Part shown: piece by piece, positions 47,237-61,483 of the stretch
How the letters are laid out: every line of letters starts with the position of its first letter
Numbering within the stretch: position 1 is the stretch's first letter
Assembly (NCBI RefSeq): GCF_010093815.1
Contig: NW_022985557.1
Location: 744,001-808,000 of the forward strand
From: Pseudovirgaria hyperparasitica
Taxonomy: Eukaryota > Ascomycota > Dothideomycetes > Acrospermales > Acrospermaceae
Direction of reading: 5' to 3'
Length of the DNA stretch: 64,000 nucleotides
Notes under the pieces: model-generated
Seen by the model: the letters and a program-made list of their open reading frames with translations, nothing else
What the model was told of the DNA's origin: nothing
The model's database searches: none
Position numbers and translations under genes: made by a program

Positions 47237-48655
47237 CTAATATTTGGCGTGCTTGTGTCGTTCGTGTGAAGACCGTGAGTCCTCGTTCGAACTGACTGAG
47301 CGATTGCGCTTTTCTCTGCGCTCATGTGCGTGTGCGTTTGGGTTGTCTCCAGTAGTTACCGTTGTCTGCAACTCAGTGCCGTCCTCTGCCGCCCTCAGCG
47401 ACTCGCTGCTGTCCACGGCCGTGGGACGTGTACCATGCTCAGCATCTCTCTTTTTGCGTGCCTCTCTAGCATCGTCCGCCTGCTTCAGCAGCGCAAGCAT
47501 CAGGTGCGGTGCCATCTTCGGCGCCAATTTGGTCTCCGTTGCAGGTGTACCTCCCGTTGTAGCCGGTCTGGCAGGCACACTCCTGCTCGCCCCTATCAGC
47601 CTGTCTAATTTACACTCCAGTTGAGACCAAAGGCACCACGTACATGGGTACCCTCCTTGGCACTCTTTTCCACGGTTCCGTGCATTGCACTCGTCGCACG
47701 CCACGCTATTCCTACTTTCGATGGCATTGGTAGGGACTACCGCGTACTTCCACAAGTCCCTTTCACCCGGCAGCTTGATTGTCCACTTCCCGACTAGGCT
47801 GTCGCGGATCACGGGAAGCTCGCAGGCGAAACTGATGAAGCAGCGCTGGTGTCTTCTGGCGCTCGTGCTGGCCGAGTTTCCACACGCATCACAAGGACCG
47901 TCTATGGGATGACCACTGGAGAAAGAACAATTCTTGCCTGTGACCTTGCAATTCTCGCATTTCCAGGGGGTGTCTTCTTTGCGAGTTTGGGGCTGGGCCA
48001 CGCGATGTAGACTGGCCGGAGTGAGATTTGACGGCGTGTCAATGGCTTGGATACTGGCAGGATCGACTTGGAGGTGTACCCGGGCATCGAACATCCAAAC
48101 TTTGTCCAGGGGGTGCATGTACCATGGGAGTTTTCTCCTGTCTACCGGAATGTCACCCCTTTCTGGCCTGAACCAATTCAGCCTTAATGTACACTGCTCA
48201 CCGCGAAGTGCGCAACAGTCGCAAGGCTTCAGTGTTTCCATATTGCATGTTCGGGCCTCTTCCGAGTCGGCTCCAAGGGAGTAACAACCAACGCATGCCT
48301 TGCACAGGAACGTGAGGTACTGCAGTTGAATACATTTCAACTCGTCGGAGCAGAAGCGGCAGACGTTCGATTCTAGTCTTGCACCATTGCCGATGGCGCT
48401 CGACTCTGATGAGCAGTCGATCCGTCTGCCCAAGCATGGTAGACAAATGCGGGGACTGACTTCTTGAGGATTGATGAACTGCTCGTTGCGGGAGTCGGAC
48501 AGTGCAGCAGTTTGATTCAGCTGGTTGTCTGGACCTGTGGGTGTAGGGTAAAGGTTCGACGTCTGGCTATTGGAGCTTATGACTTGATCGTCTCCGAGTG
48601 CTCTATGTTCTTCATTTAGAGGCATGATTGGCTTAGAATCGGAACTCATTGGCAT
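47237..48655 (-). CDS. Cysteine-rich protein with four zinc-cluster-like arrays
   Basis: 472 residues, single exon, ATG start. Cysteines fall in four successive groups: 71/74/81/99/102/108, then 118/121/124 with 137/145/148/155, then 233/236/243/255/258/272, then 320/323/332/338/341/348. Each group contains two CX2C pairs, and the last (CX2CX8CX5CX2CX6C) is close to a Zn2Cys6 domain, though it lacks the usual strongly basic first loop. Residues 1-65 are polar and disordered. The tail (380-472) has a short helix (MAPHLMLALLKQADDAREARKKRD) and a Arg/His/Ser-rich end that could act as a nuclear localisation signal. No fungal-specific transcription factor domain is present. A zinc-binding nuclear protein is a reasonable inference; the function is unknown. 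Confidence 0.7.
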   Translation of the reverse strand: MPMSSDSKPIMPLNEEHRALGDDQVISSNSQTSNLYPTPTGPDNQLNQTAALSDSRNEQFINPQEVSPRICLPCLGRRIDCSSESSAIGNGARLESNVCRFCSDELKCIQLQYLTFLCKACVGCYSLGADSEEARTCNMETLKPCDCCALRGEQCTLRLNWFRPERGDIPVDRRKLPWYMHPLDKVWMFDARVHLQVDPASIQAIDTPSNLTPASLHRVAQPQTRKEDTPWKCENCKVTGKNCSFSSGHPIDGPCDACGNSASTSARRHQRCFISFACELPVIRDSLVGKWTIKLPGERDLWKYAVVPTNAIESRNSVACDECNARNRGKECQGGYPCTWCLWSQLECKLDRLIGASRSVPARPATTGGTPATETKLAPKMAPHLMLALLKQADDAREARKKRDAEHGTRPTAVDSSESLRAAEDGTELQTTVTTGDNPNAHAHERREKRNRSVSSNEDSRSSHERHKHAKY

Positions 48656-49323
48656 TTGTATTCGTGATGAACTTGTACTTCTTGGTTATGGTGGTAGGAG
48701 GATGGGAGAAGCACAGGGAGAAAGATCTCGGACATAGAAGGAGATGCAATGGTATTTCTGTGGTGGACAATACGACAGATGACTAAGTATCCCTACCTAA
48801 CGAGAAACAATATACATGGCATGGTTACGAATAGTGAATCACCTATGCCTAGATCTGAAGATAAACAGTAACAATGCAGTGACAGACCAGGATATTCAAG
48901 CCCCATACTCGGGAAACACAAGTCAGGTACAATTCAAAGCTCTTGCTAGGGTACTGAAGTCATCGACTGCCATAGTTTTTGGGAGGTTGACTTATGTAGT
49001 GAAAATGACGGTTCTACCTGTAGCTGTGCAGCTGAAGCACGCCAACGTGAAAACAAAGGGGCTGTGGTACACTTATCTACCATACATAGATAGTACATCG
49101 ATACCAGCCGGAGGGGAGGAGTTTCAAAGCACAGACAGTAAATAGTGACTTGCGATTCTTGATACCATTGTGTCAGAATACAGCTATATTGAGGCTAGCC
49201 TATATGGACCTAATTTCTAATCCAAATTCCGCCACAGCCATGGTGAAATGTCGTCGGGCCGGTACAAACAGCTCGTCCGCCCAGATAGATTGTTCAACAC
49301 GACCACCACTTTCCGTCATGGTT
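48656..49323. other. Intergenic, promoter of four-array protein
   Basis: 668 bp between the lactonase stop and the start of the cysteine-rich gene, both on the minus strand. A 109-codon plus-strand stretch at 48816-49145 has an ATG but looks random. Nothing else is recognisable. Confidence 0.4.
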
Positions 49324-51881: not shown

Positions 51882-54775
51882 TCAGACCTTCTCATGAGAT
51901 CCTTGTGTTTCATGACTCGTGCCGTCAGTTTCTTTAGTCTCAACTATCAAGAGTAGTGTGGTACCCAGATCACTGTAGCCCTCCATTTCACCGCACTTAT
52001 CTACGAGGTGCTTGACATCACGAAGCATACTATAAGACTTGATTAGCACCCCAATTCCACACAACTTCATCATGACATGGACTTGGAAATGTACAAGACA
52101 TACCATTCACGACCAGTATTTGTTACTGGGTCAGCTTTCTTGAATACGTCCACAAAGTGCTCTCGATAGCATGCAAACACCGGCGTCATCACACGCAGCA
52201 CTATCGATGATGGACATCGTTTACTTAAAGCTCTGTATATCTTGCCTGTATCCTTTGTGAGGCTTGTCATATACTGCCGCACATCAGTGGGACTCCCCAG
52301 GTTCCACTCAATCTCGCAGGCCTGTCTGGATAGCACACGAGCGCGCTGCTTCAGAATCTCCACTAGCTTCTCGTAGATAGCCTCCTGGTGCTCTCGAAAG
52401 GTGCGCTGCACCTTGTCAAATTCGTCGGACAGCTTCTTGTCCGAACGAGCCGTTCTTTGTGCAAAGTCGCGGATATGCGGGATGATCGAAGCCATAAAAC
52501 GGATCGCTTGCAAGGCAGATATCAGATTCGTATGCGTTATGACCGCGAGACCAGCAGAGTATATAGCACCTGCACCCAGGACTAGCTGGCGGCATCGTGA
52601 GTCAAACAGACGGAGGTATGATATCAATGACATAGTGGTCTCGGTCGCCATGGTGGGAATGCCGCATGACAAGCGTAGAAAGTGCGACGTTCCACGCAGG
52701 CAGAGAATCGCAGCCTTGGGAATAAGGAAGGACTCGTTGTCTATAATGGCACCACGGACTTTACCTGTTTGCTGGGCATTTTCAGTCATGTAAGCTTCGT
52801 TTTCTAACGTCTTTGGCGACGAATATTGCGGGCCGATATCGTGCAGAGAATCAAGTGTGCGGTGGTGAAGAACCTGGTCTAATATCTTGTTGTCCTCGGT
52901 TGTAAAATCTTCATCCTGCCAAATATCACTATTCATCTGTTGGGCAAGTGTCTCGTTCTGCATGTTTCCATGCTTTCTAACATAATCCTTAGCATGTCTA
53001 TCTATGACGGTTCTCAAGGAGGTTGATTGTTGTCCCAATATAGCTTCGCACTGCTTGACGAAGAGACTGTTTGAAGCATAGTAGCGGACAAAGGAGGTCA
53101 GCGGAGACTGAATGGTCTGCTCAGAACGAATCTGAAGGATCTCGATGATCTGCTCACAACCTGATGTCACAACACGTTTGAAAATGCTGGGAGTGTCGAG
53201 TAGTCTCCGTATCTCGTCTTGTAGTGCAGTCGTACCAATGAATGCGGCCATATCTAGAAGCAAGTCTGTTTGCCCTTGAATTCGCCTGAGCGTCTCAGTG
53301 ATGCCGATAAAGATGGAAAGTAGGAGCTCTTCAGCATGATGGTCTTTGAGACTGCGAACGATTCTTGTCAGAATTGCGGTTCGTTCTTGAAGCATACGAT
53401 GACTCCTACAGTCAGTTTTCAATCTTAATGGTACAGACCCTGGGTCGTCGTCTGAGGAAGAGAGTAGCTTATGAACAAAATTGAGGATCTCCTGGTTCAT
53501 AGCGTCTCGATATGTTCGAATAACCTTCGGTATAGATCTAGACTTATGAAGCCCGTGAAATGCAGGCACAAGTGATGTGCGGAGTTCTCCGAAGTGACTA
53601 ACATGCGTTGAAAATGCCAGCGATTCTTTAATGTCATCTTCCATGGATCGTAACGGGGAAGCTCGCCACCTCGACACTACTGCCTCCGTCTGAACAGACC
53701 GGACGTAGTTCCGCAAGTCGTCGATGAGGAAATTGAGAACTTGCGCCTCGAGAATATCACCAATATTAACCCGAAGATGGTCTAGGTCGTCACGGTATCC
53801 TTGTAAAGACGTAACTCCACGTAAATCTCGGAGTCGCGAACGTGGCATAGGGATCCCGACTGTTTCATCACGCTCACCGACTATCAACATGTCAATAGCA
53901 TCAATCTCAGTAAGAGCCTCTGCAGTCTGCCCTTGCTCAACTAACAGCTTCGCATGAGTACGCGCATGCGCGATGCGCTCTAGCTGCTGCATAGCATCTT
54001 GTAGTTGCTGAAGGTTATGGCGCATGCGCTTCTTCTGTAGCAGTCTCAAACCACCCGCTACAAGATTCTCATCCAGCGAAGCAAGGTCCTTGCGCAGGAT
54101 TGCTATATTCTCGACGAGTTCTGCAGCCTCAATATGTAGCTCTTCCAATGAAGCGAAGGTGGACGAGATTGGTGTAGCTGCCGTTGAAAGGGAGTTAATC
54201 AGATGAACTTCTGCTATGTCAATGTACCACGAGAGCTTTTCCTGCAGGATTGCATTGGTGGCTAAGGCTTTTCTGGGCTCTACTGCACCGATCTCGTCTC
54301 TCGATGTCATAAGTTCTGACCGCTCACTGACAATATCGAAAGTCCTTGGGTTTCTCAAATCGAATTGCTCATCGAAATATGCAACGGGTATCGTGGCCAA
54401 GGATGGCGCGTCATGCTTGCTTCGACGATCAAGCCCGCCAATGTCGCGCATGGTACCATCCAGCGGATTAGCATCTTCATCTACTACCAAACACTTGATC
54501 CGTCCACTCTTATCTGTTTCCCGACAATCATCCCTGCGGTCTCCTATTGACCTCAAAAGGTTATATATGGGTCCAATCCGCTCCACGTATGAATCGAACT
54601 CGCGTGTCTCAACGGGCGGTATCGACGTAAGAACAACGGGAGGAATGTCGCGTGCGGTCGGTATTCTATACAGGGCTGAGGGTGACACAGGCTTCTGTTG
54701 TACCAGTCCGCTTCGAGCTATCGGCGGTTGTAAAAGCGTCGAAATAGCTGTACAAACATAAGCTTGATCACACAT
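51882..54775 (-). CDS. VPS54: GARP tethering complex subunit Vps54
   Basis: Exons 52104-54775 and 51882-52029 (74-nt intron) give 939 residues. Vps54 belongs to the GARP complex, which tethers endosome-derived vesicles at the trans-Golgi. Features: DIPPVVLTSIPPV near residue 43, a coiled-coil region (LEELHIEAAELVENIAILRKDL to ILRHNLQQLQD, about 210-265), and the Vps54 C-terminal domain from about 540 on (SPLTSFVRYYASNSLFVKQCEAIL, then FLIPKAAILCLRGTSHFLRLSCGIPTMATETTMSLISYLRLFDSRCRQLVLGAGA near 680-735). The spliced end reads GREC-MLRDVKHLVDKCGEMEGYSDLG, the usual family C-terminus, which supports the intron. The N-terminus is uncertain: homologues begin with a longer disordered region, and an acceptor-like TTTGTACAG lies 28 nt inside my start, so an upstream exon is possible. 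Confidence 0.88.
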
Positions 54776-56635
54776 AGCAACGATTGGACTCGCGCTTCAC
54801 CATTTGGGCTGGTCTGAAGGTTTCGCGCTGTCGCGCTGATTGATGAGCATGATCGCACGTCCATGTGGCTCGTTGGGTGATATTCTGCTCCTCTCTCTCC
54901 TTTTGTTCTGGTGTCTGTCTGCTACGAGCATAGTATGGGTGTGAGGAGGCAATCGAACAATTACTGCTGTGAAAGCTTGCAACTCATAGAAACGCAAGCT
55001 GCGAACATGTGGCGCGCGCGATATACCACCAATTCCTTGCAAGTAGATGGTTCGCAGCTTGAACAAATGTGTCTAATGTGGATGTGGACTGATGCAGTTC
55101 CGCGCCCGCATTCTAGGCAGACACATTCCGCTCAACAGGTAATGCGATGAGGAGCAGGCACCGCATCAGATTATAACAAATAATGCATGTTAACTATGCT
55201 ACTCAACCAATTATACTAAGGTCTTCCCATCACCAAGTAAGAACTAGAATGCTGAACTATATTGTTCAAGCCCTCGCTATGTACGTATATATATATATGT
55301 TTATGCCGTATAAACAGGAGCCTGCTCCTTAAACTCCTCTAGTATTCAACGGTCGGACAACAGGGGTCAGCGCAGGGGGCAACATCCTAGCTAGTTTTAG
55401 TACTGTCCGTGCAGTAATTAATAGCTGCCTGCGTAAAGCCTCTGGCTCACTTTCCGTTCCATCTCAAAGACAGTCCTTCCAGCTACCAGGTATCAATAGC
55501 CAGATGTAGGAGCTCGACAGGCGAATAGTCTTCAAAGGAGCGCTCATATACTACTTGAACCCCACTCACTCATTCAGTACATTTACCTCTTAGCAATGGA
55601 CAGTGGCCTCTAACCGTAAAGGGTAGTGCATTAAACTAGTGCATTACCGCCTTAGTTCTAGTCATCTAATTACTTACTAATTTACTGTTAACATCGTCTC
55701 TTGAACTACCTCCAAACTTACATTGTAAAAGCAGCATTTGGGGAGCTATATACTGGCGGCGACTGAGAAGCCGTGGATTTACATTAATGCACTCCGTATC
55801 ATCATATGAAGTGGGCACCATGGTAGCACTATGTAGACTACTAGCACATACCGTACATCTGCACTGCCTGGTCGAAGACCAAATCAATACGACAACTCTA
55901 AGTGAATTAGAATTCAATTATTATATCAGCAGCTCATTGTGACCAGAAGGCAAAGCAATATATCAAAGCCATTTTTTTGTGATGAGCATCTGCTACCGGT
56001 ACGCACGACAATTCGGTATGTGTGGTTCATGTCGATTGCTAATATTTTGCCATTATAGCGGAGATCAAATTGTACCACATTTCAGATGCTATCATAGATC
56101 ATATGTGATATAGGCAATCAGAAGACTTCAAATGAGCCTGCTCACTGGTTTCTGGGAAGAGAATATTGCTTTCCACTGGTCTCCCTTGTTCCTGGTACAT
56201 GACATCTTGCATGTATACACCTGATAAGCAGCTGTGTCTCTAGTGCTAATATCAGTATTCTTTATTCGGCATGAGACCAGACATGAAGTGGTGAAGCCGC
56301 CAGGAACTATTCCTGACCAAGTGAAGTCGACATCGGGGTCATCGTCTCACACTAGTTATTCTAGCTGAACTATCTTATCAAATCTTTAAGTGACCTAGCA
56401 CGTTGCTTTACATCCATATAGCACAGTTTGGCGCTGGCTCCCAAGTCTACAGTGACACTGAAGTCAGATCAAGCGTCTCCGACCGATCATTCACTGTCTT
56501 CGATAGATCAGGTTCAATATAGTGACTTTCTTGTATGATGCGCTTCTTGTAAGTCTGGATTTGTTGCTGACATGCTATAGAGCTTCGCCCAAGTTCACCA
56601 AAGCACCAATCGCTTGGTATAGTAAGACATCAACA
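54776..56635. other. Divergent upstream region, VPS54 and nuclease-like gene
   Basis: 1.9 kb with the promoters of VPS54 (minus) and the His-Cys-box gene (plus). A TA microsatellite lies at about 55284-55300. 55918-56521 has no frame of 60 codons. A GTAAGT...CTATAG pair at 56550-56580 looks like a leader intron but is only about 32 nt, too short to trust. An upstream VPS54 exon may lie near 54797-54940. Confidence 0.4.
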
Positions 56636-57805
56636 ATGGACAGGCTCAAACCTCATCGAGATTCCCTATCGCCATTCAACTACGACAGTCAACCAACACC
56701 AACTTTGTCTCATGCGATCTCCAGCCATGAGCAGACGTCAGGAAACCGATCTCATGATAACGTTACGCCTACGTCTAGCTTCGAAAGATCTAATCTGCCT
56801 TGTGAAAATGATAGCTATAGGCAGAAGAGCTATGTTCGTATGAAGAAATACGTACTAAGCCAGCTCACTTACAATCAACGCCTTCAAATCCGGAAAATAG
56901 TCGGCAGAATTCAAGAGGAAGCTAGAGGTGACCTAGACAAAGATGCGTGCTGGCTTCACAAGAGTTGGAGAGAAGATCCTAGCCCCGCGAGATGGTGCAA
57001 CAGGGTTCATCTTGGGATTAGCTTAGGTATTGGATATCTCAGTCTGAGCGTTACCCTGTGGCGTCACATCCTCGACGAGACTCTTTCTCTTGACCAGAAA
57101 CAAGGTTTCATATATGGAACACCATGGCCTAGCAGATTCACGAAGTCTGGAGCACTATACAAGTCTTCTCATGAAACATGGAGTCTGAGCCATCGTTGTG
57201 GCAACTTCCCATGTGTGAATGAACGCCACACTGTCTTGGAACGTCAGACAATCAACATCAACCGCAATAGGTGCCACAGGGGGACAAAGATATGCGATCA
57301 TCACCCGCTGTGTATCTTGGGATTGAAGATGTCCAAAGAACAACTTCGCCCTAAGCACGGCAAACGGCAACTTGAAACAGAGCCTTTAAGCAAGAAGAGC
57401 TCGTCTGCGATCTATATTGTGGAGACGACATCTGTTGCTCCACCACACGGTTCATGTAGCACTACAGCTCTTAGTAGCTCTTCGATGACTACTTCAGTCA
57501 CGCAACGTTCAGTCTCCCCTGAAATTGTCTTTCTGGGCCGTCGGCGTCGGTTTACAACTGCAAGAGGGTCGAATGATTCAATGGCCTCAGATCATGGGAG
57601 TGCCAGAGATACTGAGCAGGCACAATGTTGTCTGTTACGCGACACTCCTTTCGGCATTGGAAGGAATGCTCGGTCGCCATCTCCTGGATTTACCATCATT
57701 GGCGACGGTCCTGTCACAGACAAACCACGGTTCAGCCGCATGAGCACGACCTATCTGCACTCACCCTCGAGAATAATAATTGACCTCCGATCACCTTCGC
57801 CCTAA
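56636..57805 (+). CDS. I-PpoI-type His-Cys-box nuclease-like protein, SIM-rich tail
   Basis: 389 residues, single exon, starting at the first ATG of the frame. The core is the zinc-binding loop of His-Cys-box homing endonucleases: Cys105 (CWLHKSW), His186 and Cys188 in LSHRCGN, Cys193, His198, Asn207 (six before Cys213), Cys213, Cys220, His222 and Cys226. These correspond to I-PpoI C41, H98, C100, C105, H110, N119, C125, C132, H134 and C138, so both zinc sites and the catalytic His/Asn pair are kept. The N-terminal 60 residues are disordered. The tail (230-389) is Ser-rich and carries four short hydrophobic runs next to Ser or acidic residues: IYIVE at 259, EIVFLG at 296, FTIIGD at 352 and RIIIDL at 379. 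Nuclease activity and the SUMO-binding role are inferences. Its paralogue is at 59636. Confidence 0.8.
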   Translation: MDRLKPHRDSLSPFNYDSQPTPTLSHAISSHEQTSGNRSHDNVTPTSSFERSNLPCENDSYRQKSYVRMKKYVLSQLTYNQRLQIRKIVGRIQEEARGDLDKDACWLHKSWREDPSPARWCNRVHLGISLGIGYLSLSVTLWRHILDETLSLDQKQGFIYGTPWPSRFTKSGALYKSSHETWSLSHRCGNFPCVNERHTVLERQTININRNRCHRGTKICDHHPLCILGLKMSKEQLRPKHGKRQLETEPLSKKSSSAIYIVETTSVAPPHGSCSTTALSSSSMTTSVTQRSVSPEIVFLGRRRRFTTARGSNDSMASDHGSARDTEQAQCCLLRDTPFGIGRNARSPSPGFTIIGDGPVTDKPRFSRMSTTYLHSPSRIIIDLRSPSP

Positions 57806-58158
57806 CGTTCCGGGCAGCTTCGTTGCTCGTCTCTAAGTGGTTCACTAATGATATAGGCAATTCTGGGATAGGTCTAGCTCAACTAAACAGATAACAATAC
57901 GGGTAACCACGGGACAGTGTAGCTTCTGGAAATGAAATATAAAGTCTTCCACTTCGCACTTGAATCTTTTTCCTATCTACGAATATTAGACTGCTTCCGC
58001 TTTGTTCCGGTGACCCGTGACTTCCGTTTCTCTTAAATAAACTTTATTTCATACCTCTTTGTTGTACAACCCGAAGTCCATCGCTTCAACTCGGCCTCAA
58101 ATCTTCTTTAACCGCCTCAATTGGTCAATTATTGGTTTGCGGTTGCGCACGGCTTATC
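57806..58158. other. Intergenic
   Basis: 353 bp between the His-Cys-box gene and the orphan gene on the same strand, AT-rich. No promoter element was recognised. Confidence 0.4.
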
Positions 58159-58764
58159 ATGTCGGAGAGTCCACTCACCCAAGAGGAAGAGCAGGTCCTT
58201 GTTGAAGACCAAATCCTTATTCCCCTGCCATATCCCCACCAGTCCAGAACAAAGAAGGGAAAGGTTTTCGCGGCATTTTTTTCGAGCTTGTCTTCGCCGG
58301 ACTCATCAAGCATTCCACCAAGCGCTTCTGGCACCATATCGGTGTTCTACCAATCCACGAGCCCCAATATAGGCATCGAAATCCCCTTGGTTTTGCACAG
58401 CCCGGAAACCATTGAGTACCTTGGCTTTGAGATACGAATCGCACACGAGCTTTTCAGTCGATGGAATCATAGGCATCCTCGAATAGGGCTTCTGGACTTT
58501 GTGTACGGTCACACAGCGAGTGCCCGAGGGTTAAAGCTAGACAGTGCAAACATCTCGGACCGCGATGTCCTAGCTCAGCTTGGCGTACAGACTTGGCTTC
58601 AGGATACGACTCTCGACAAAGTCGCTTCACAGGTTGTCGATATCCACATTGTTCAATTCTGGCTTGACGACACTCTCAAGACCCGCTACAACTCACTGAG
58701 GTCGATGCTACATCTATTAAAATCACACGCCGTGTTAAGATTACACGAATCTGCACAAATCTGA
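58159..58764 (+). CDS. Orphan protein between two nuclease-like genes
   Basis: 201 residues, single exon, ATG in good context (ATCATGTCG). I do not recognise it. Residues 1-55 are acidic then Lys-containing and Ser-rich. From about 58 the sequence alternates hydrophobic strands and helices (GTISVFYQS, IGIEIPLVLHSPETIEYLGFEIRIAHELF, IGLLDFVYGHT, VLAQLGVQTWLQDTTL, VDIHIVQFWLDDTL), ending in a helix (SLRSMLHLLKSHAVLRLHES), so a compact alpha/beta fold is likely. There are no cysteines and no signal peptide or membrane segment. It sits between the two His-Cys-box genes on the same strand, which raises the possibility of a joint function, but no evidence beyond position exists. Confidence 0.65.
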   Translation: MSESPLTQEEEQVLVEDQILIPLPYPHQSRTKKGKVFAAFFSSLSSPDSSSIPPSASGTISVFYQSTSPNIGIEIPLVLHSPETIEYLGFEIRIAHELFSRWNHRHPRIGLLDFVYGHTASARGLKLDSANISDRDVLAQLGVQTWLQDTTLDKVASQVVDIHIVQFWLDDTLKTRYNSLRSMLHLLKSHAVLRLHESAQI

Positions 58765-59635
58765 TGACAGGCAATAGGATAGCAAATAGAGCTCGGAGGA
58801 GGAACTATATGTATCGAGGGTTGACAGAAGTGTGTGGTTACTTGAATTTTGAGGAATAGGTCGTCAGATAGGTGTCCAACTACATGCAGCCCGCCCAGAT
58901 TTTGTAACATAGTAATAAGTTAGCTCGATAATTCTATTATATGATCTTTGGCTTTCTATGATTCTGTCTGATGGCTATATTACCACATGAAATACCATCG
59001 AGTTACTTAGGTAGAAAGAGACTAGTCAGTCCCTAAGTAAAGCCTCGTGGAAAGTCTCAGATCCGCTCAGCTATAACTTTCCACGATGGGAAAGAGCTTA
59101 TCTGGTATTTTCAGAGACGCATCAGACCACTAGAAGAGTTCAACGACCTGATAGGCAAGAATAGCGCGAGAGGACACATCTGTCGAGGGTCTTCAGAATT
59201 CGTCCAAGGTGTATCGAAAGATAAATTTCAGGAGAAAATGACAGACCGCGCAATGATCGTTGATGGATGCAAAGCTTCACAGGTTATGATCATGAACGAG
59301 GAAGCTGCAAGAAGAATATTCCAAGAAGCGAAAGGAAGAGTTCATATCGAGATTGAACGCGATTGCACAAAGGTGGTTGCTTGGCATATACGGTAGAGGC
59401 AAAAGTGATATTGTATCTCTATGATTCCGGTCCTCAGTATCATATTCACTCACTTCCAGCATCTAGATAACAATCATTATGCATTCGAGTATGACCAGGG
59501 TTGCCATCTGTGTCATAAGTGAACTGCCAATTCTTCTATCTCGAATCATGAACCTCGCCTTGGAGATATCTCCATCGTTCCTAGATCCTACCTCCAGCAT
59601 CATTCTAGCAGTATCCTTGACGGCATCCAACCACT
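58765..59635. other. Intergenic
   Basis: 871 bp between the orphan gene and the second His-Cys-box gene. Short frames only; no element identified. Confidence 0.4.
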
Positions 59636-60388
59636 ATGGCGCTCTCTGAATACTCCAATAGCAGCAATCACCCTCCAAATACCACCCTCAAGCCCCCTGA
59701 ATCCAAACACCGCGTCCTCAGTAGACTCCACAGATCCCACCTCCGGCCCAAACTCCCACTTCCTCTCCCAGAGCACCAGCGCCTGAACCCACTCCTCGTC
59801 CCTCTTCCCGAGCGCAAGAGAATGGCCCTCAGCATCCTCTCCACCTCGCCCCTCAACGCGCCAAACCGCGCCAAAGTCGAAGCCTACGTAGCCACCGTCC
59901 AGACCGCCGCACGAGGCAACAAATCCGCGCTCGAATGCTGGTTCCACGCACCATGGGTCGCAAAACCCGGCGACAAGCGCTGGCGCACACACACCATCTC
60001 CAAGGCATTTACATTCCGCTTTGCGTTTGCACGAATCCATGTGGGGTTCCACTACGGCGTGTGGGCGTTACTCTGCGCAGGGCCACTCAGTGATGAGGCC
60101 CAAAAGGGGCTTGTTGAAGTTAGTCAGGACAAGAAGGTGACGTGGAAGACGGAGGGGTATGATCTGAGTCACTTGTGTGGGAGCTGGGTGTGTTGTAACC
60201 CTGCGCACTTGGTTGCGGAGCGTAGGAGGGTGAATATGGAGCGGAAGAGGTGTCACAGGATGGCGAGGTGTGTGGGTGGGAAGGGTGGAGAGCATGAGCC
60301 GAGATGTGTTGTTGGTGTGCAGTTGGCGAGTAGGGTGTTGGGGAATAGGAGGGATGAGGTTGTGGAGGAGTGGGATAGTGATTGCTGA
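59636..60388 (+). CDS. I-PpoI-type His-Cys-box nuclease-like protein
   Basis: 250 residues, single exon. The zinc-loop core is a closer match to I-PpoI than its upstream paralogue: Cys101 (CWFHAPW), His179 and Cys181 in LSHLCGS, Cys186, His191 in CNPAHL, Asn200 (six before Cys206), Cys206, Cys212, His220 and Cys224. Spacings C181-C186-H191 equal those of C100-C105-H110 in I-PpoI, so the catalytic His and Asn and both zinc sites are intact. The N-terminal 70 residues are Pro/Leu/Arg-rich and disordered. Unlike true homing endonucleases, it is not in an intron or rDNA but is a free-standing gene, so the fold may serve another purpose. Its codons are noticeably GC-richer than those of the paralogue at 56636. 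Confidence 0.82.
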   Translation: MALSEYSNSSNHPPNTTLKPPESKHRVLSRLHRSHLRPKLPLPLPEHQRLNPLLVPLPERKRMALSILSTSPLNAPNRAKVEAYVATVQTAARGNKSALECWFHAPWVAKPGDKRWRTHTISKAFTFRFAFARIHVGFHYGVWALLCAGPLSDEAQKGLVEVSQDKKVTWKTEGYDLSHLCGSWVCCNPAHLVAERRRVNMERKRCHRMARCVGGKGGEHEPRCVVGVQLASRVLGNRRDEVVEEWDSDC

Positions 60389-61483
60389 GTTGGTGATCGT
60401 ATATGGCGAGGTCATCTTCTCACGACATTTGGGGACTGTGAGGTGGTGGTTAATTAGAGCGTTGATGTATGAGCTCAACGATGTGATATCAATGTGGTCG
60501 GGCATATCTTCGACGACATAAACGAATGCAGCGAGCTGGAAGAACTGCGGTTATCAAACCATGAAATAAAGTCTCAATACTTATATAACCACTGCTAAAT
60601 ACGAAACTTGATATGGTTTCACCAAAGATCGTTCTGTGCAGTTCAATCTGGAATTACCCCTGAGTCGATGCTGCCTCAGGCACGAATCAGTCAGCATAAG
60701 CCGCACTACTTACACAATTGATCTTTATAGACTTTATTATATCATATTTACGATTGGCTAGTATATCTACTTATTATCATCTGCTAATGACTAACAGGAC
60801 AATATAATTAGTGTAGCATAGCTAGCTGTGAGTGTGCATACAGCAGCGTTTACCTCTTTCGCAAAGTACATGATTCATGTATCAAATCATGCGGCGATCT
60901 TGAGACCTGGAGTGAATGACGTCGTTGACTGACCTAGTGATAACAAGCAAATCGTCATATCCCAGAGCAAACGGCGAACTGACGTGTCTGATCGTAAGTG
61001 AAAAGGTGAAGAAAGTGAAGAAAGTGAACAGTGACAAGCACGTGGTAGCAAGGAAACGTATCTGGCAGGCAGCACTGATCGTCAGACCACCGCTATTTTG
61101 TTATTGTTGTTGCTGTTGCTGTTGCTGTTTCTGTTGCTGGTGTTGTTGATATCGCGACTCGCACCGGATCTTCTCACCGCCGTCTCACTTACATTATCCT
61201 CCCATCCCAATCCCTAATGTGCGTCTGATGCATTCTTCGTATTGGCTCCATTATTCCCTTCTGTATTGTTTGATCCTTCTGTGCGCACTGTACATTGGCA
61301 GTGACGACCGTGTACCTATCGCTCTATCCGTTTCTGAACGTTCACGCTGGCTACTAAAATTCCTAACGGTCGGCGCCGTCGTTAGTATCGCCCTCTCCCT
61401 TCTTGGTTCTCCCTACAAGAAGCTCTTCGCTTCCAACAACAGTAGTGTTATACAACATTCTCCCTTCACGCTCAAACTGACAG
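60389..61483. other. Intergenic, leader of large 3' gene
   Basis: 1.1 kb with a trinucleotide repeat (listed). The stretch from about 60600 to 60850 is AT-rich. A 133-codon frame at 61219-61620 overlaps the start of the large gene in another frame and probably lies in its leader. The ATG at 61484 directly follows CAG, so a leader intron ending there is possible. Confidence 0.4.
61098..61149. repeat. (GTT/GCT)n trinucleotide repeat
   Basis: About 17 units of TTG, CTG or TTT-type triplets on the plus strand, starting TTGTTATTG and ending TGTTGTTG. It lies about 335 bp before the start of the large 3' gene. Confidence 0.75.

What the first reader, a model, noticed from the sequence alone, without database searches (positions are those of the whole stretch)
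56636..60388. Two complete chromosomal His-Cys-box (I-PpoI-type) proteins flanking an orphan gene
Seen: both proteins keep every I-PpoI zinc ligand and the catalytic His and Asn at matching spacings (His186/Asn207 and His179/Asn200). Known: His-Cys-box enzymes are homing endonucleases normally encoded in mobile introns of rDNA. Here they are free-standing, single-exon, paralogous genes 1.8 kb apart with diverged termini and different base composition. Inference: a domesticated or self-standing nuclease family, possibly a genome-defence, conflict or DNA-processing pair with the 201-residue protein between them.
Basis: partly seen in the sequence, partly recalled or inferred. Interest (0 to 1): 0.75.

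Follow-up and report, generated by a model that had tools for sequence, protein, structure and literature searches.

The report
Twin free-standing I-PpoI-like nuclease genes
A fungal chromosome carries, side by side, two old sister genes for a DNA-cutting enzyme type best known from parasitic ribosomal introns; both keep the core active-site residues, which suggests they are or were in use, but what they cut is unknown.

Summary
In a 35.0 Mb genome, fungal by gene content, two intact single-frame genes 1.8 kb apart (P1 56636-57805, 389 aa; P2 59636-60388, 250 aa) match Pfam PF05551, the zinc-loop/active-site module of I-PpoI, above its cut-off. They are paralogues (27% over 191 aa). The equivalents of I-PpoI His98, Asn119 and four zinc ligands recur at identical spacings; the second zinc site is exact in P1, rearranged in P2. 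The spaced motif occurs in six frames of the window only at these two genes and in none of 100 random windows. A whole-genome search found no other PF05551 place. Twelve of twelve I-PpoI-equivalent residues agree although only 51 of 156 aligned residues do. The protein between them matched nothing, so a three-gene system is unsupported. Both structure models failed (mean pLDDT 33 and 42), so the fold rests on sequence. Best reading: old, probably host-maintained free-standing His-Cys-box nucleases, target unknown. Selfish free-standing homing genes remain a real rival, since no fungal relatives could be searched.

The parts
56636..57805 (+). P1, 389-aa His-Cys-box protein gene
   Evidence: open frame from an ATG with A at -3; PF05551 34.2 bits, cut-off 27
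57164..57337 (+). P1 PF05551 match (residues 177-234), with H186, C188, C193, H198, N207, C213, C220, H222, C226
57347..57802 (+). P1 C-terminal tail (about residues 238-389), beyond the PF05551 match and the P1-P2 alignment; not matched to anything
59636..60388 (+). P2, 250-aa His-Cys-box protein gene
   Evidence: open frame from an ATG with A at -3; PF05551 56 bits; paralogue of P1
60068..60325 (+). P2 PF05551 match (residues 145-230), with H179, C181, C186, H191, N200, C206, H220, C224; Cys132 equivalent displaced
56837..56956 (+). P1 N-terminal block (residues 68-107) shared with P2, ending in the Cys taken as the Cys41 equivalent (C105)
   Evidence: BLASTP alignment of P1 and P2 starts at residue 68; Cys column by MAFFT only
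59819..59944 (+). P2 N-terminal block (residues 62-103) shared with P1, including C101
58159..58764 (+). 201-aa frame between P1 and P2; shown for context, not taken as part of the system
   Evidence: no Pfam, PDB or NCBIfam match; one place in the genome; unlike P1 and P2

Best explanation
P1 and P2 are an old duplicated pair of free-standing, chromosomal His-Cys-box endonuclease genes, most likely kept because their activity is of use to the fungus. Shown by sequence: the catalytic His and Asn, the likely Arg61 equivalent, the zinc site 1 ligands in both, zinc site 2 in P1; identity at these residues against about 33% overall; intact frames; no further family member found in the genome; no RIP scars. 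Inferred: each folds into the zinc-stabilised beta-beta-alpha-metal unit and, as a dimer (homo- or P1/P2), binds one divalent metal through the Asn, activates water with the His and cuts a specific DNA site leaving short 3' overhangs, as I-PpoI does. The target is unknown; the N-terminal half does not align well with I-PpoI, so the site should differ.
For: PF05551 above cut-off for both. Profile-profile match of the P1/P2 core to 15 I-PpoI-like proteins, probability 93.3%, E 2.7e-7 over 49 columns. Exact spacings. 12 of 12 I-PpoI-equivalent residues identical between P1 and P2 while 51 of 156 aligned residues are, hypergeometric p 5.6e-7 (nine strict residues 2.6e-5). Two PF05551 places in the genome; no second copy of the 55.0-61.2 kb DNA, 11 further matches all within one short low-complexity stretch. 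RIP indices of P1 and P2 like those of five neighbouring genes. A shared block outside the zinc module. Neighbours are ordinary genes, Vps54 upstream.
Confidence: 0.52

Rival explanations
1. Selfish free-standing homing genes: each copies itself into cleaved intergenic sites; the two are sister invaders or a tandem duplication, on the way to decay.
For: Passages of PMC13405050 and PMC3943268 say that homing endonucleases can be free-standing frames and that such frames generally go to intergenic sites, as here. P2's altered zinc site 2 and its different composition would suit an invader. No orthologues found.
Against: Only two copies, in one place, strongly diverged from each other and both with the core active-site residues. 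Selfish spread does not require tandem diverged copies. Neither frame is broken.
Confidence: 0.25
2. Escaped rDNA-intron homing gene that acts in trans on rDNA: the enzyme still cuts the LSU site region near I-PpoI's site and so moves or keeps a group I intron that no longer carries its own endonuclease gene.
For: An LSU rDNA copy of this genome carries a group I intron between ATGACT and CTCTTAAGGTAGCC, within the (recalled) I-PpoI site, with no frame of 30 aa or more in it.
Against: That rDNA copy is strongly RIP-mutated and may be dead; the working rDNA could not be examined. P1/P2 do not align with I-PpoI in its N-terminal half, so a shared site is not expected. No link between locus and intron was shown.
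Confidence: 0.1
3. Zinc-binding DNA-binding proteins that no longer cut DNA (for example regulators built on a dead nuclease module).
For: The module is small and rich in zinc ligands; P1 has a long tail of unknown role; no activity is shown.
Against: His and Asn, not needed for zinc binding, are kept in both, with Ser97, Glu114 and Arg61 equivalents.
Confidence: 0.08
4. One reading: P1, P2 and the 201-aa protein form a defence or conflict unit.
For: Three genes in the same orientation within 3.8 kb.
Against: The middle protein has no family, no relatives found and no similarity to P1 or P2. Intergenic gaps are ordinary for a fungus and no co-inheritance could be tested.
Confidence: 0.05

Closest known systems
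I-PpoI and nuclear rDNA group I intron His-Cys-box homing endonucleases (PF05551)
   Same: His98/Asn119 pair, Ser97, Glu114, zinc site 1 with identical spacing from His98 on, zinc site 2 in P1, likely Cys41 and Arg61 equivalents
   Different: Not in an intron or rDNA; larger proteins (250 and 389 aa versus 163); the N-terminal half and I-PpoI's GSHTVPF stretch have no convincing counterpart; Cys41-Arg61 interval 14 instead of 20 residues; P2 zinc site 2 altered
KolobokP transposon His-Me finger nuclease (PMC9587614, passages)
   Same: I-PpoI-like His-Cys-box nuclease encoded outside a group I intron
   Different: KolobokP has a DDD/E transposase and long terminal direct repeats, in animals; here no second copy of the locus and no repeat pair that looks like element ends in 55.0-61.3 kb
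PF05551 ORFs on Naegleria rDNA plasmids (PMC12482156, passages)
   Same: PF05551 reading frames annotated as ORFs, in one plasmid two of them (orf203, orf223)
   Different: They lie on an extrachromosomal rDNA plasmid; here a 1.58 Mb contig, away from rDNA

Membership tests
His-Cys-box nuclease family (PF05551, His-Me finger superfamily) | Profile match above the curated cut-off | tested here: met
   56 and 34.2 bits against 27; the matches cover model positions 41-125 and 60-127 of 131, not the start of the model
His-Cys-box nuclease family (PF05551, His-Me finger superfamily) | Catalytic His and metal-binding Asn at I-PpoI spacing | tested here: met
   H186/N207 and H179/N200
His-Cys-box nuclease family (PF05551, His-Me finger superfamily) | Two zinc sites, eight ligands | tested here: inconclusive
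   P1: all eight, the first Cys by alignment only. P2: site 1 kept (first Cys by alignment only), Cys132 equivalent displaced
His-Cys-box nuclease family (PF05551, His-Me finger superfamily) | Beta-beta-alpha-metal fold | tested here: inconclusive
His-Cys-box nuclease family (PF05551, His-Me finger superfamily) | DNA cleavage activity | not testable with these tools
   needs purified protein
Intron-encoded nuclear homing endonuclease | Gene lies inside an rDNA group I intron | tested here: not met
   no Rfam family at gathering score in the window; neighbours are protein genes
KolobokP-type transposon nuclease | Element with transposase, terminal repeats and several copies | tested here: not met
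   no second copy in the genome; no terminal-repeat-like pair; no transposase match in the 13 window frames scanned against Pfam; other frames were not scanned
Free-standing selfish homing gene | Presence/absence at a cut site and biased inheritance | not testable with these tools
   no relatives or population data held

The most novel reading that the evidence does not exclude
P1 and P2 are the two different halves of a domesticated heterodimeric His-Cys-box nuclease: after duplication both kept the active site but diverged elsewhere, so that together they cut an asymmetric chromosomal site (for example in rDNA or at a developmental switch) as a programmed break for the fungus's own use.
Probability: 0.08. 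Interest if true: 0.8.

Novelty: new variant of a known kind. Interest (0 to 1): 0.42.

Why it matters
PMC9548176 (passages) describes nuclear group I introns as reported exclusively in rDNA and the nuclear homing endonucleases as all of the His-Cys family. A tandem pair of chromosomal, non-rDNA members with the core active site raises a direct question, what a homing-enzyme active site does when freed from its intron, and offers two small proteins to test. If host-maintained, they would be a His-Cys-box nuclease taken over by its host; if selfish, free-standing nuclear homing genes in a fungus. I recall, from no call, that sequence databases name many fungal proteins after this Pfam domain, so the family is probably wider than this genome, though the paper searches made here listed no study of it.

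Tried and rejected
Homologues: two single-protein searches of 5.8 billion proteins returned only P2 itself (1 hit among 411 candidates at E 0.001; 1 among 7 at E 10). A three-row alignment with I-PpoI returned 17 among 604 candidates at E 10: P2 itself, I-PpoI and 15 others (14 of the 15 with PF05551 precomputed), none a closer relative of P1/P2. Scans of viral contigs and of bacterial/archaeal genome contigs gave 19, 113 and 50 pattern matches but no confirmed relative. PDB by sequence gave one chance match for P2, none for P1 and one chance match for their profile; I-PpoI was not among them.

A third weak whole-genome match to P2 (E 0.66, C9:451591-451845) was read and rejected: no His-Cys box in its translation.

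A 37-base, 70% similarity between the middle gene and P2 (D1) is at chance level as protein (E 0.26).

Whole-genome and region requests about 18S rDNA, other LSU copies, an intact I-PpoI site, wider contig stretches and an I-PpoI-relative query did not complete, so the state of the working rDNA is unknown.

Literature: nine searches listed no study, judged by title and start of abstract, of free-standing chromosomal fungal His-Cys-box genes. The lists were partial: 20 of 119, 1 of 1, 1 of 1, 30 of 41, 20 of 50, 2 of 2, 10 of 526, 15 of 67 and 10 of 43. Nine papers were opened, passages only. A classification paper on the His-Me superfamily, looked up by a recalled DOI, is not held. 'Not in print' is limited to these searches of an open-access library.
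Full report
What is there. The window is bases 744001-808000 of a 1.58 Mb contig (C9) in an unnamed assembly of 35.0 Mb in 59 contigs. The gene content is fungal: Fungal_trans, Zn2Cys6, Coq4, Sec2p, Vps54. P1 (56636-57805, 389 aa) and P2 (59636-60388, 250 aa) are open in one frame on the + strand, with A at -3 of each ATG. A 201-aa frame (58159-58764) lies between. Vps54 lies upstream on the other strand (52070-54796) and a long open frame starts at 61481 downstream.

Family. Both proteins match PF05551 above the curated cut-off (P2 56 bits, P1 34.2 bits, cut-off 27). They match each other at 27% over 191 aa, E 1e-20, including a block N-terminal to the zinc module. A profile of the two cores matches a profile of 15 I-PpoI-like proteins with probability 93.3% and E 2.7e-7 over 49 columns. 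Those 15 are 15 of the 16 non-self proteins; the I-PpoI record (P0002) was left out of this profile.

Active site. Relative to the catalytic His, the residues equivalent to C100, C105, H110, N119 and C125 lie at +2, +7, +12, +21 and +27 in both proteins (positions). In the 18-row alignment (both window cores and all 16 proteins) 12 columns are invariant, among them the equivalents of R61, S97, C100, C105, H110, E114, N119, C125, H134 and C138. The H98 column is His in 17 of 18 rows; the exception is the database record of I-PpoI, which has Gln there. PMC9587614 names H98, H110, N119, S97 and E114 as conserved in this group (passages). PMC11325842 places His98 by the nucleophilic water, a conserved asparagine on the metal, and Arg61 on the product phosphate (passages). 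His78 of I-PpoI has no clear counterpart; in that paper H78A alone had activity similar to wild type.

Differences from I-PpoI. P2's second zinc site has no Cys in the Cys132 column (17 of 18 rows have it) and a Cys six residues after C206 instead. The Cys41-Arg61 interval is 14 residues instead of 20, and the rest of the N-terminal half aligns poorly. The Cys41 and Arg61 equivalents rest on the MAFFT alignment alone.

Chance. The spaced motif occurs in six frames of the window only at these two genes and 0 times in 100 first-order Markov windows. Between P1 and P2, 51 of 156 aligned residues are identical, yet 12 of 12 I-PpoI-equivalent residues are (p 5.6e-7; nine strict residues 2.6e-5; inside the domain 38 of 107 identical, p 1.1e-6 for the 12 and 4.5e-5 for the nine). 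This supports selection on the active site since the split, with the caveat that such residues also anchor the alignment. The displaced Cys132 equivalent was not among the 12.

Genome context. PF05551 rings at two places only (2 first-look candidates, both scored; introns are ignored, so an interrupted member could be missed). A protein search with P2 adds one weak match (E 0.66) that carries no His-Cys box. As DNA, 55000-61200 matches elsewhere only within about 50 bases of low-complexity repeat at 61098-61150 (11 further matches). The repeat pairs of 16 bases or more in the region are short, imperfect and do not frame an element. No Rfam family reaches its gathering score in the window. RIP indices of P1 and P2 (TpA/ApT 0.63 and 0.59; second index 1.27 and 1.27) are like those of five neighbouring genes (0.55-0.68; 1.23-1.37), so they are not a recent duplication caught by RIP. 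Codon fit to nine window frames is weak for P1, P2 (0.010 each) and the middle gene (-0.006), against 0.007-0.090 for the nine frames themselves; this neither proves nor excludes long residence.

The rDNA link. The one group I intron match found in the genome (26 of 1,173 candidates scored, so a lower bound) lies in an LSU rDNA copy on contig C40. The intron sits between ATGACT and CTCTTAAGGTAGCC, probably position L1921, a fungal intron site named in PMC3112068 (passages; I did not compute E. coli numbering). No frame of 30 aa or more overlaps it. The 15-base I-PpoI site, recalled, is absent from this locus at up to one mismatch. This copy is strongly RIP-mutated (TpA/ApT 1.96, second index 0.35), so it may be dead. 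Whether the working rDNA has the intron could not be tested, because later genome requests did not complete. A group I intron without an endonuclease gene at the I-PpoI region and two unlinked His-Cys-box genes in one genome are suggestive, but nothing ties them together.

The gene between. No Pfam match (scanned without its first Met), no NCBIfam or PDB match, one place in the genome, no meaningful similarity to P2 or P1 (best E 0.26 and 3.2). I do not include it in the system.

Mechanism. Most likely: zinc-stabilised, metal-dependent, His-activated cleavage of a specific DNA site by a dimer, as in I-PpoI, with a target of its own. The active-site residues and their conservation are shown by sequence; the fold, dimer, cleavage and target are inferred. 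Host maintenance is preferred over selfish homing because two diverged copies with the core active site sit in tandem in one place and, as far as searched, nowhere else; without relatives this is a moderate preference (0.52 against 0.25).

Novelty. The catalytic module is known. What differs is the setting (chromosomal, free-standing, tandem, outside rDNA) and the N-terminal half. The nearest printed cases seen are KolobokP transposons (PMC9587614, passages) and PF05551 ORFs on Naegleria rDNA plasmids (PMC12482156, passages). I recall that databases list further fungal proteins under this Pfam domain; that is recall, not a test, and if right it would move the verdict towards 'new member of a known kind'.

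Noticed in passing
G000:C40, locus L009:1-2919: An LSU rDNA copy that looks heavily RIP-mutated (TpA/ApT 1.96, second index 0.35) and carries a group I intron inside the I-PpoI site region. RIP acting on rDNA, or an rDNA pseudo-copy, deserves a look.
   Followed up: partly
59580-60520: Gene P2 has the sharpest GC-skew flip of the window: first 400 bases 41% C and 18% G, last 350 bases 43% G and 13% C, switching near 60040 (skew step 0.93; next largest in the window 0.67). Long antisense open frames lie on both halves. Cause unknown.
   Followed up: partly
61098-61150: A TTGCTG-type low-complexity stretch with matches on contigs C4, C10, C12, C13, C14 and C19.
   Followed up: no
47237-48685, - strand: A 482-aa frame with several Cys-rich stretches resembling, by eye, zinc clusters, but no Pfam match at E 0.001.
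   Followed up: no
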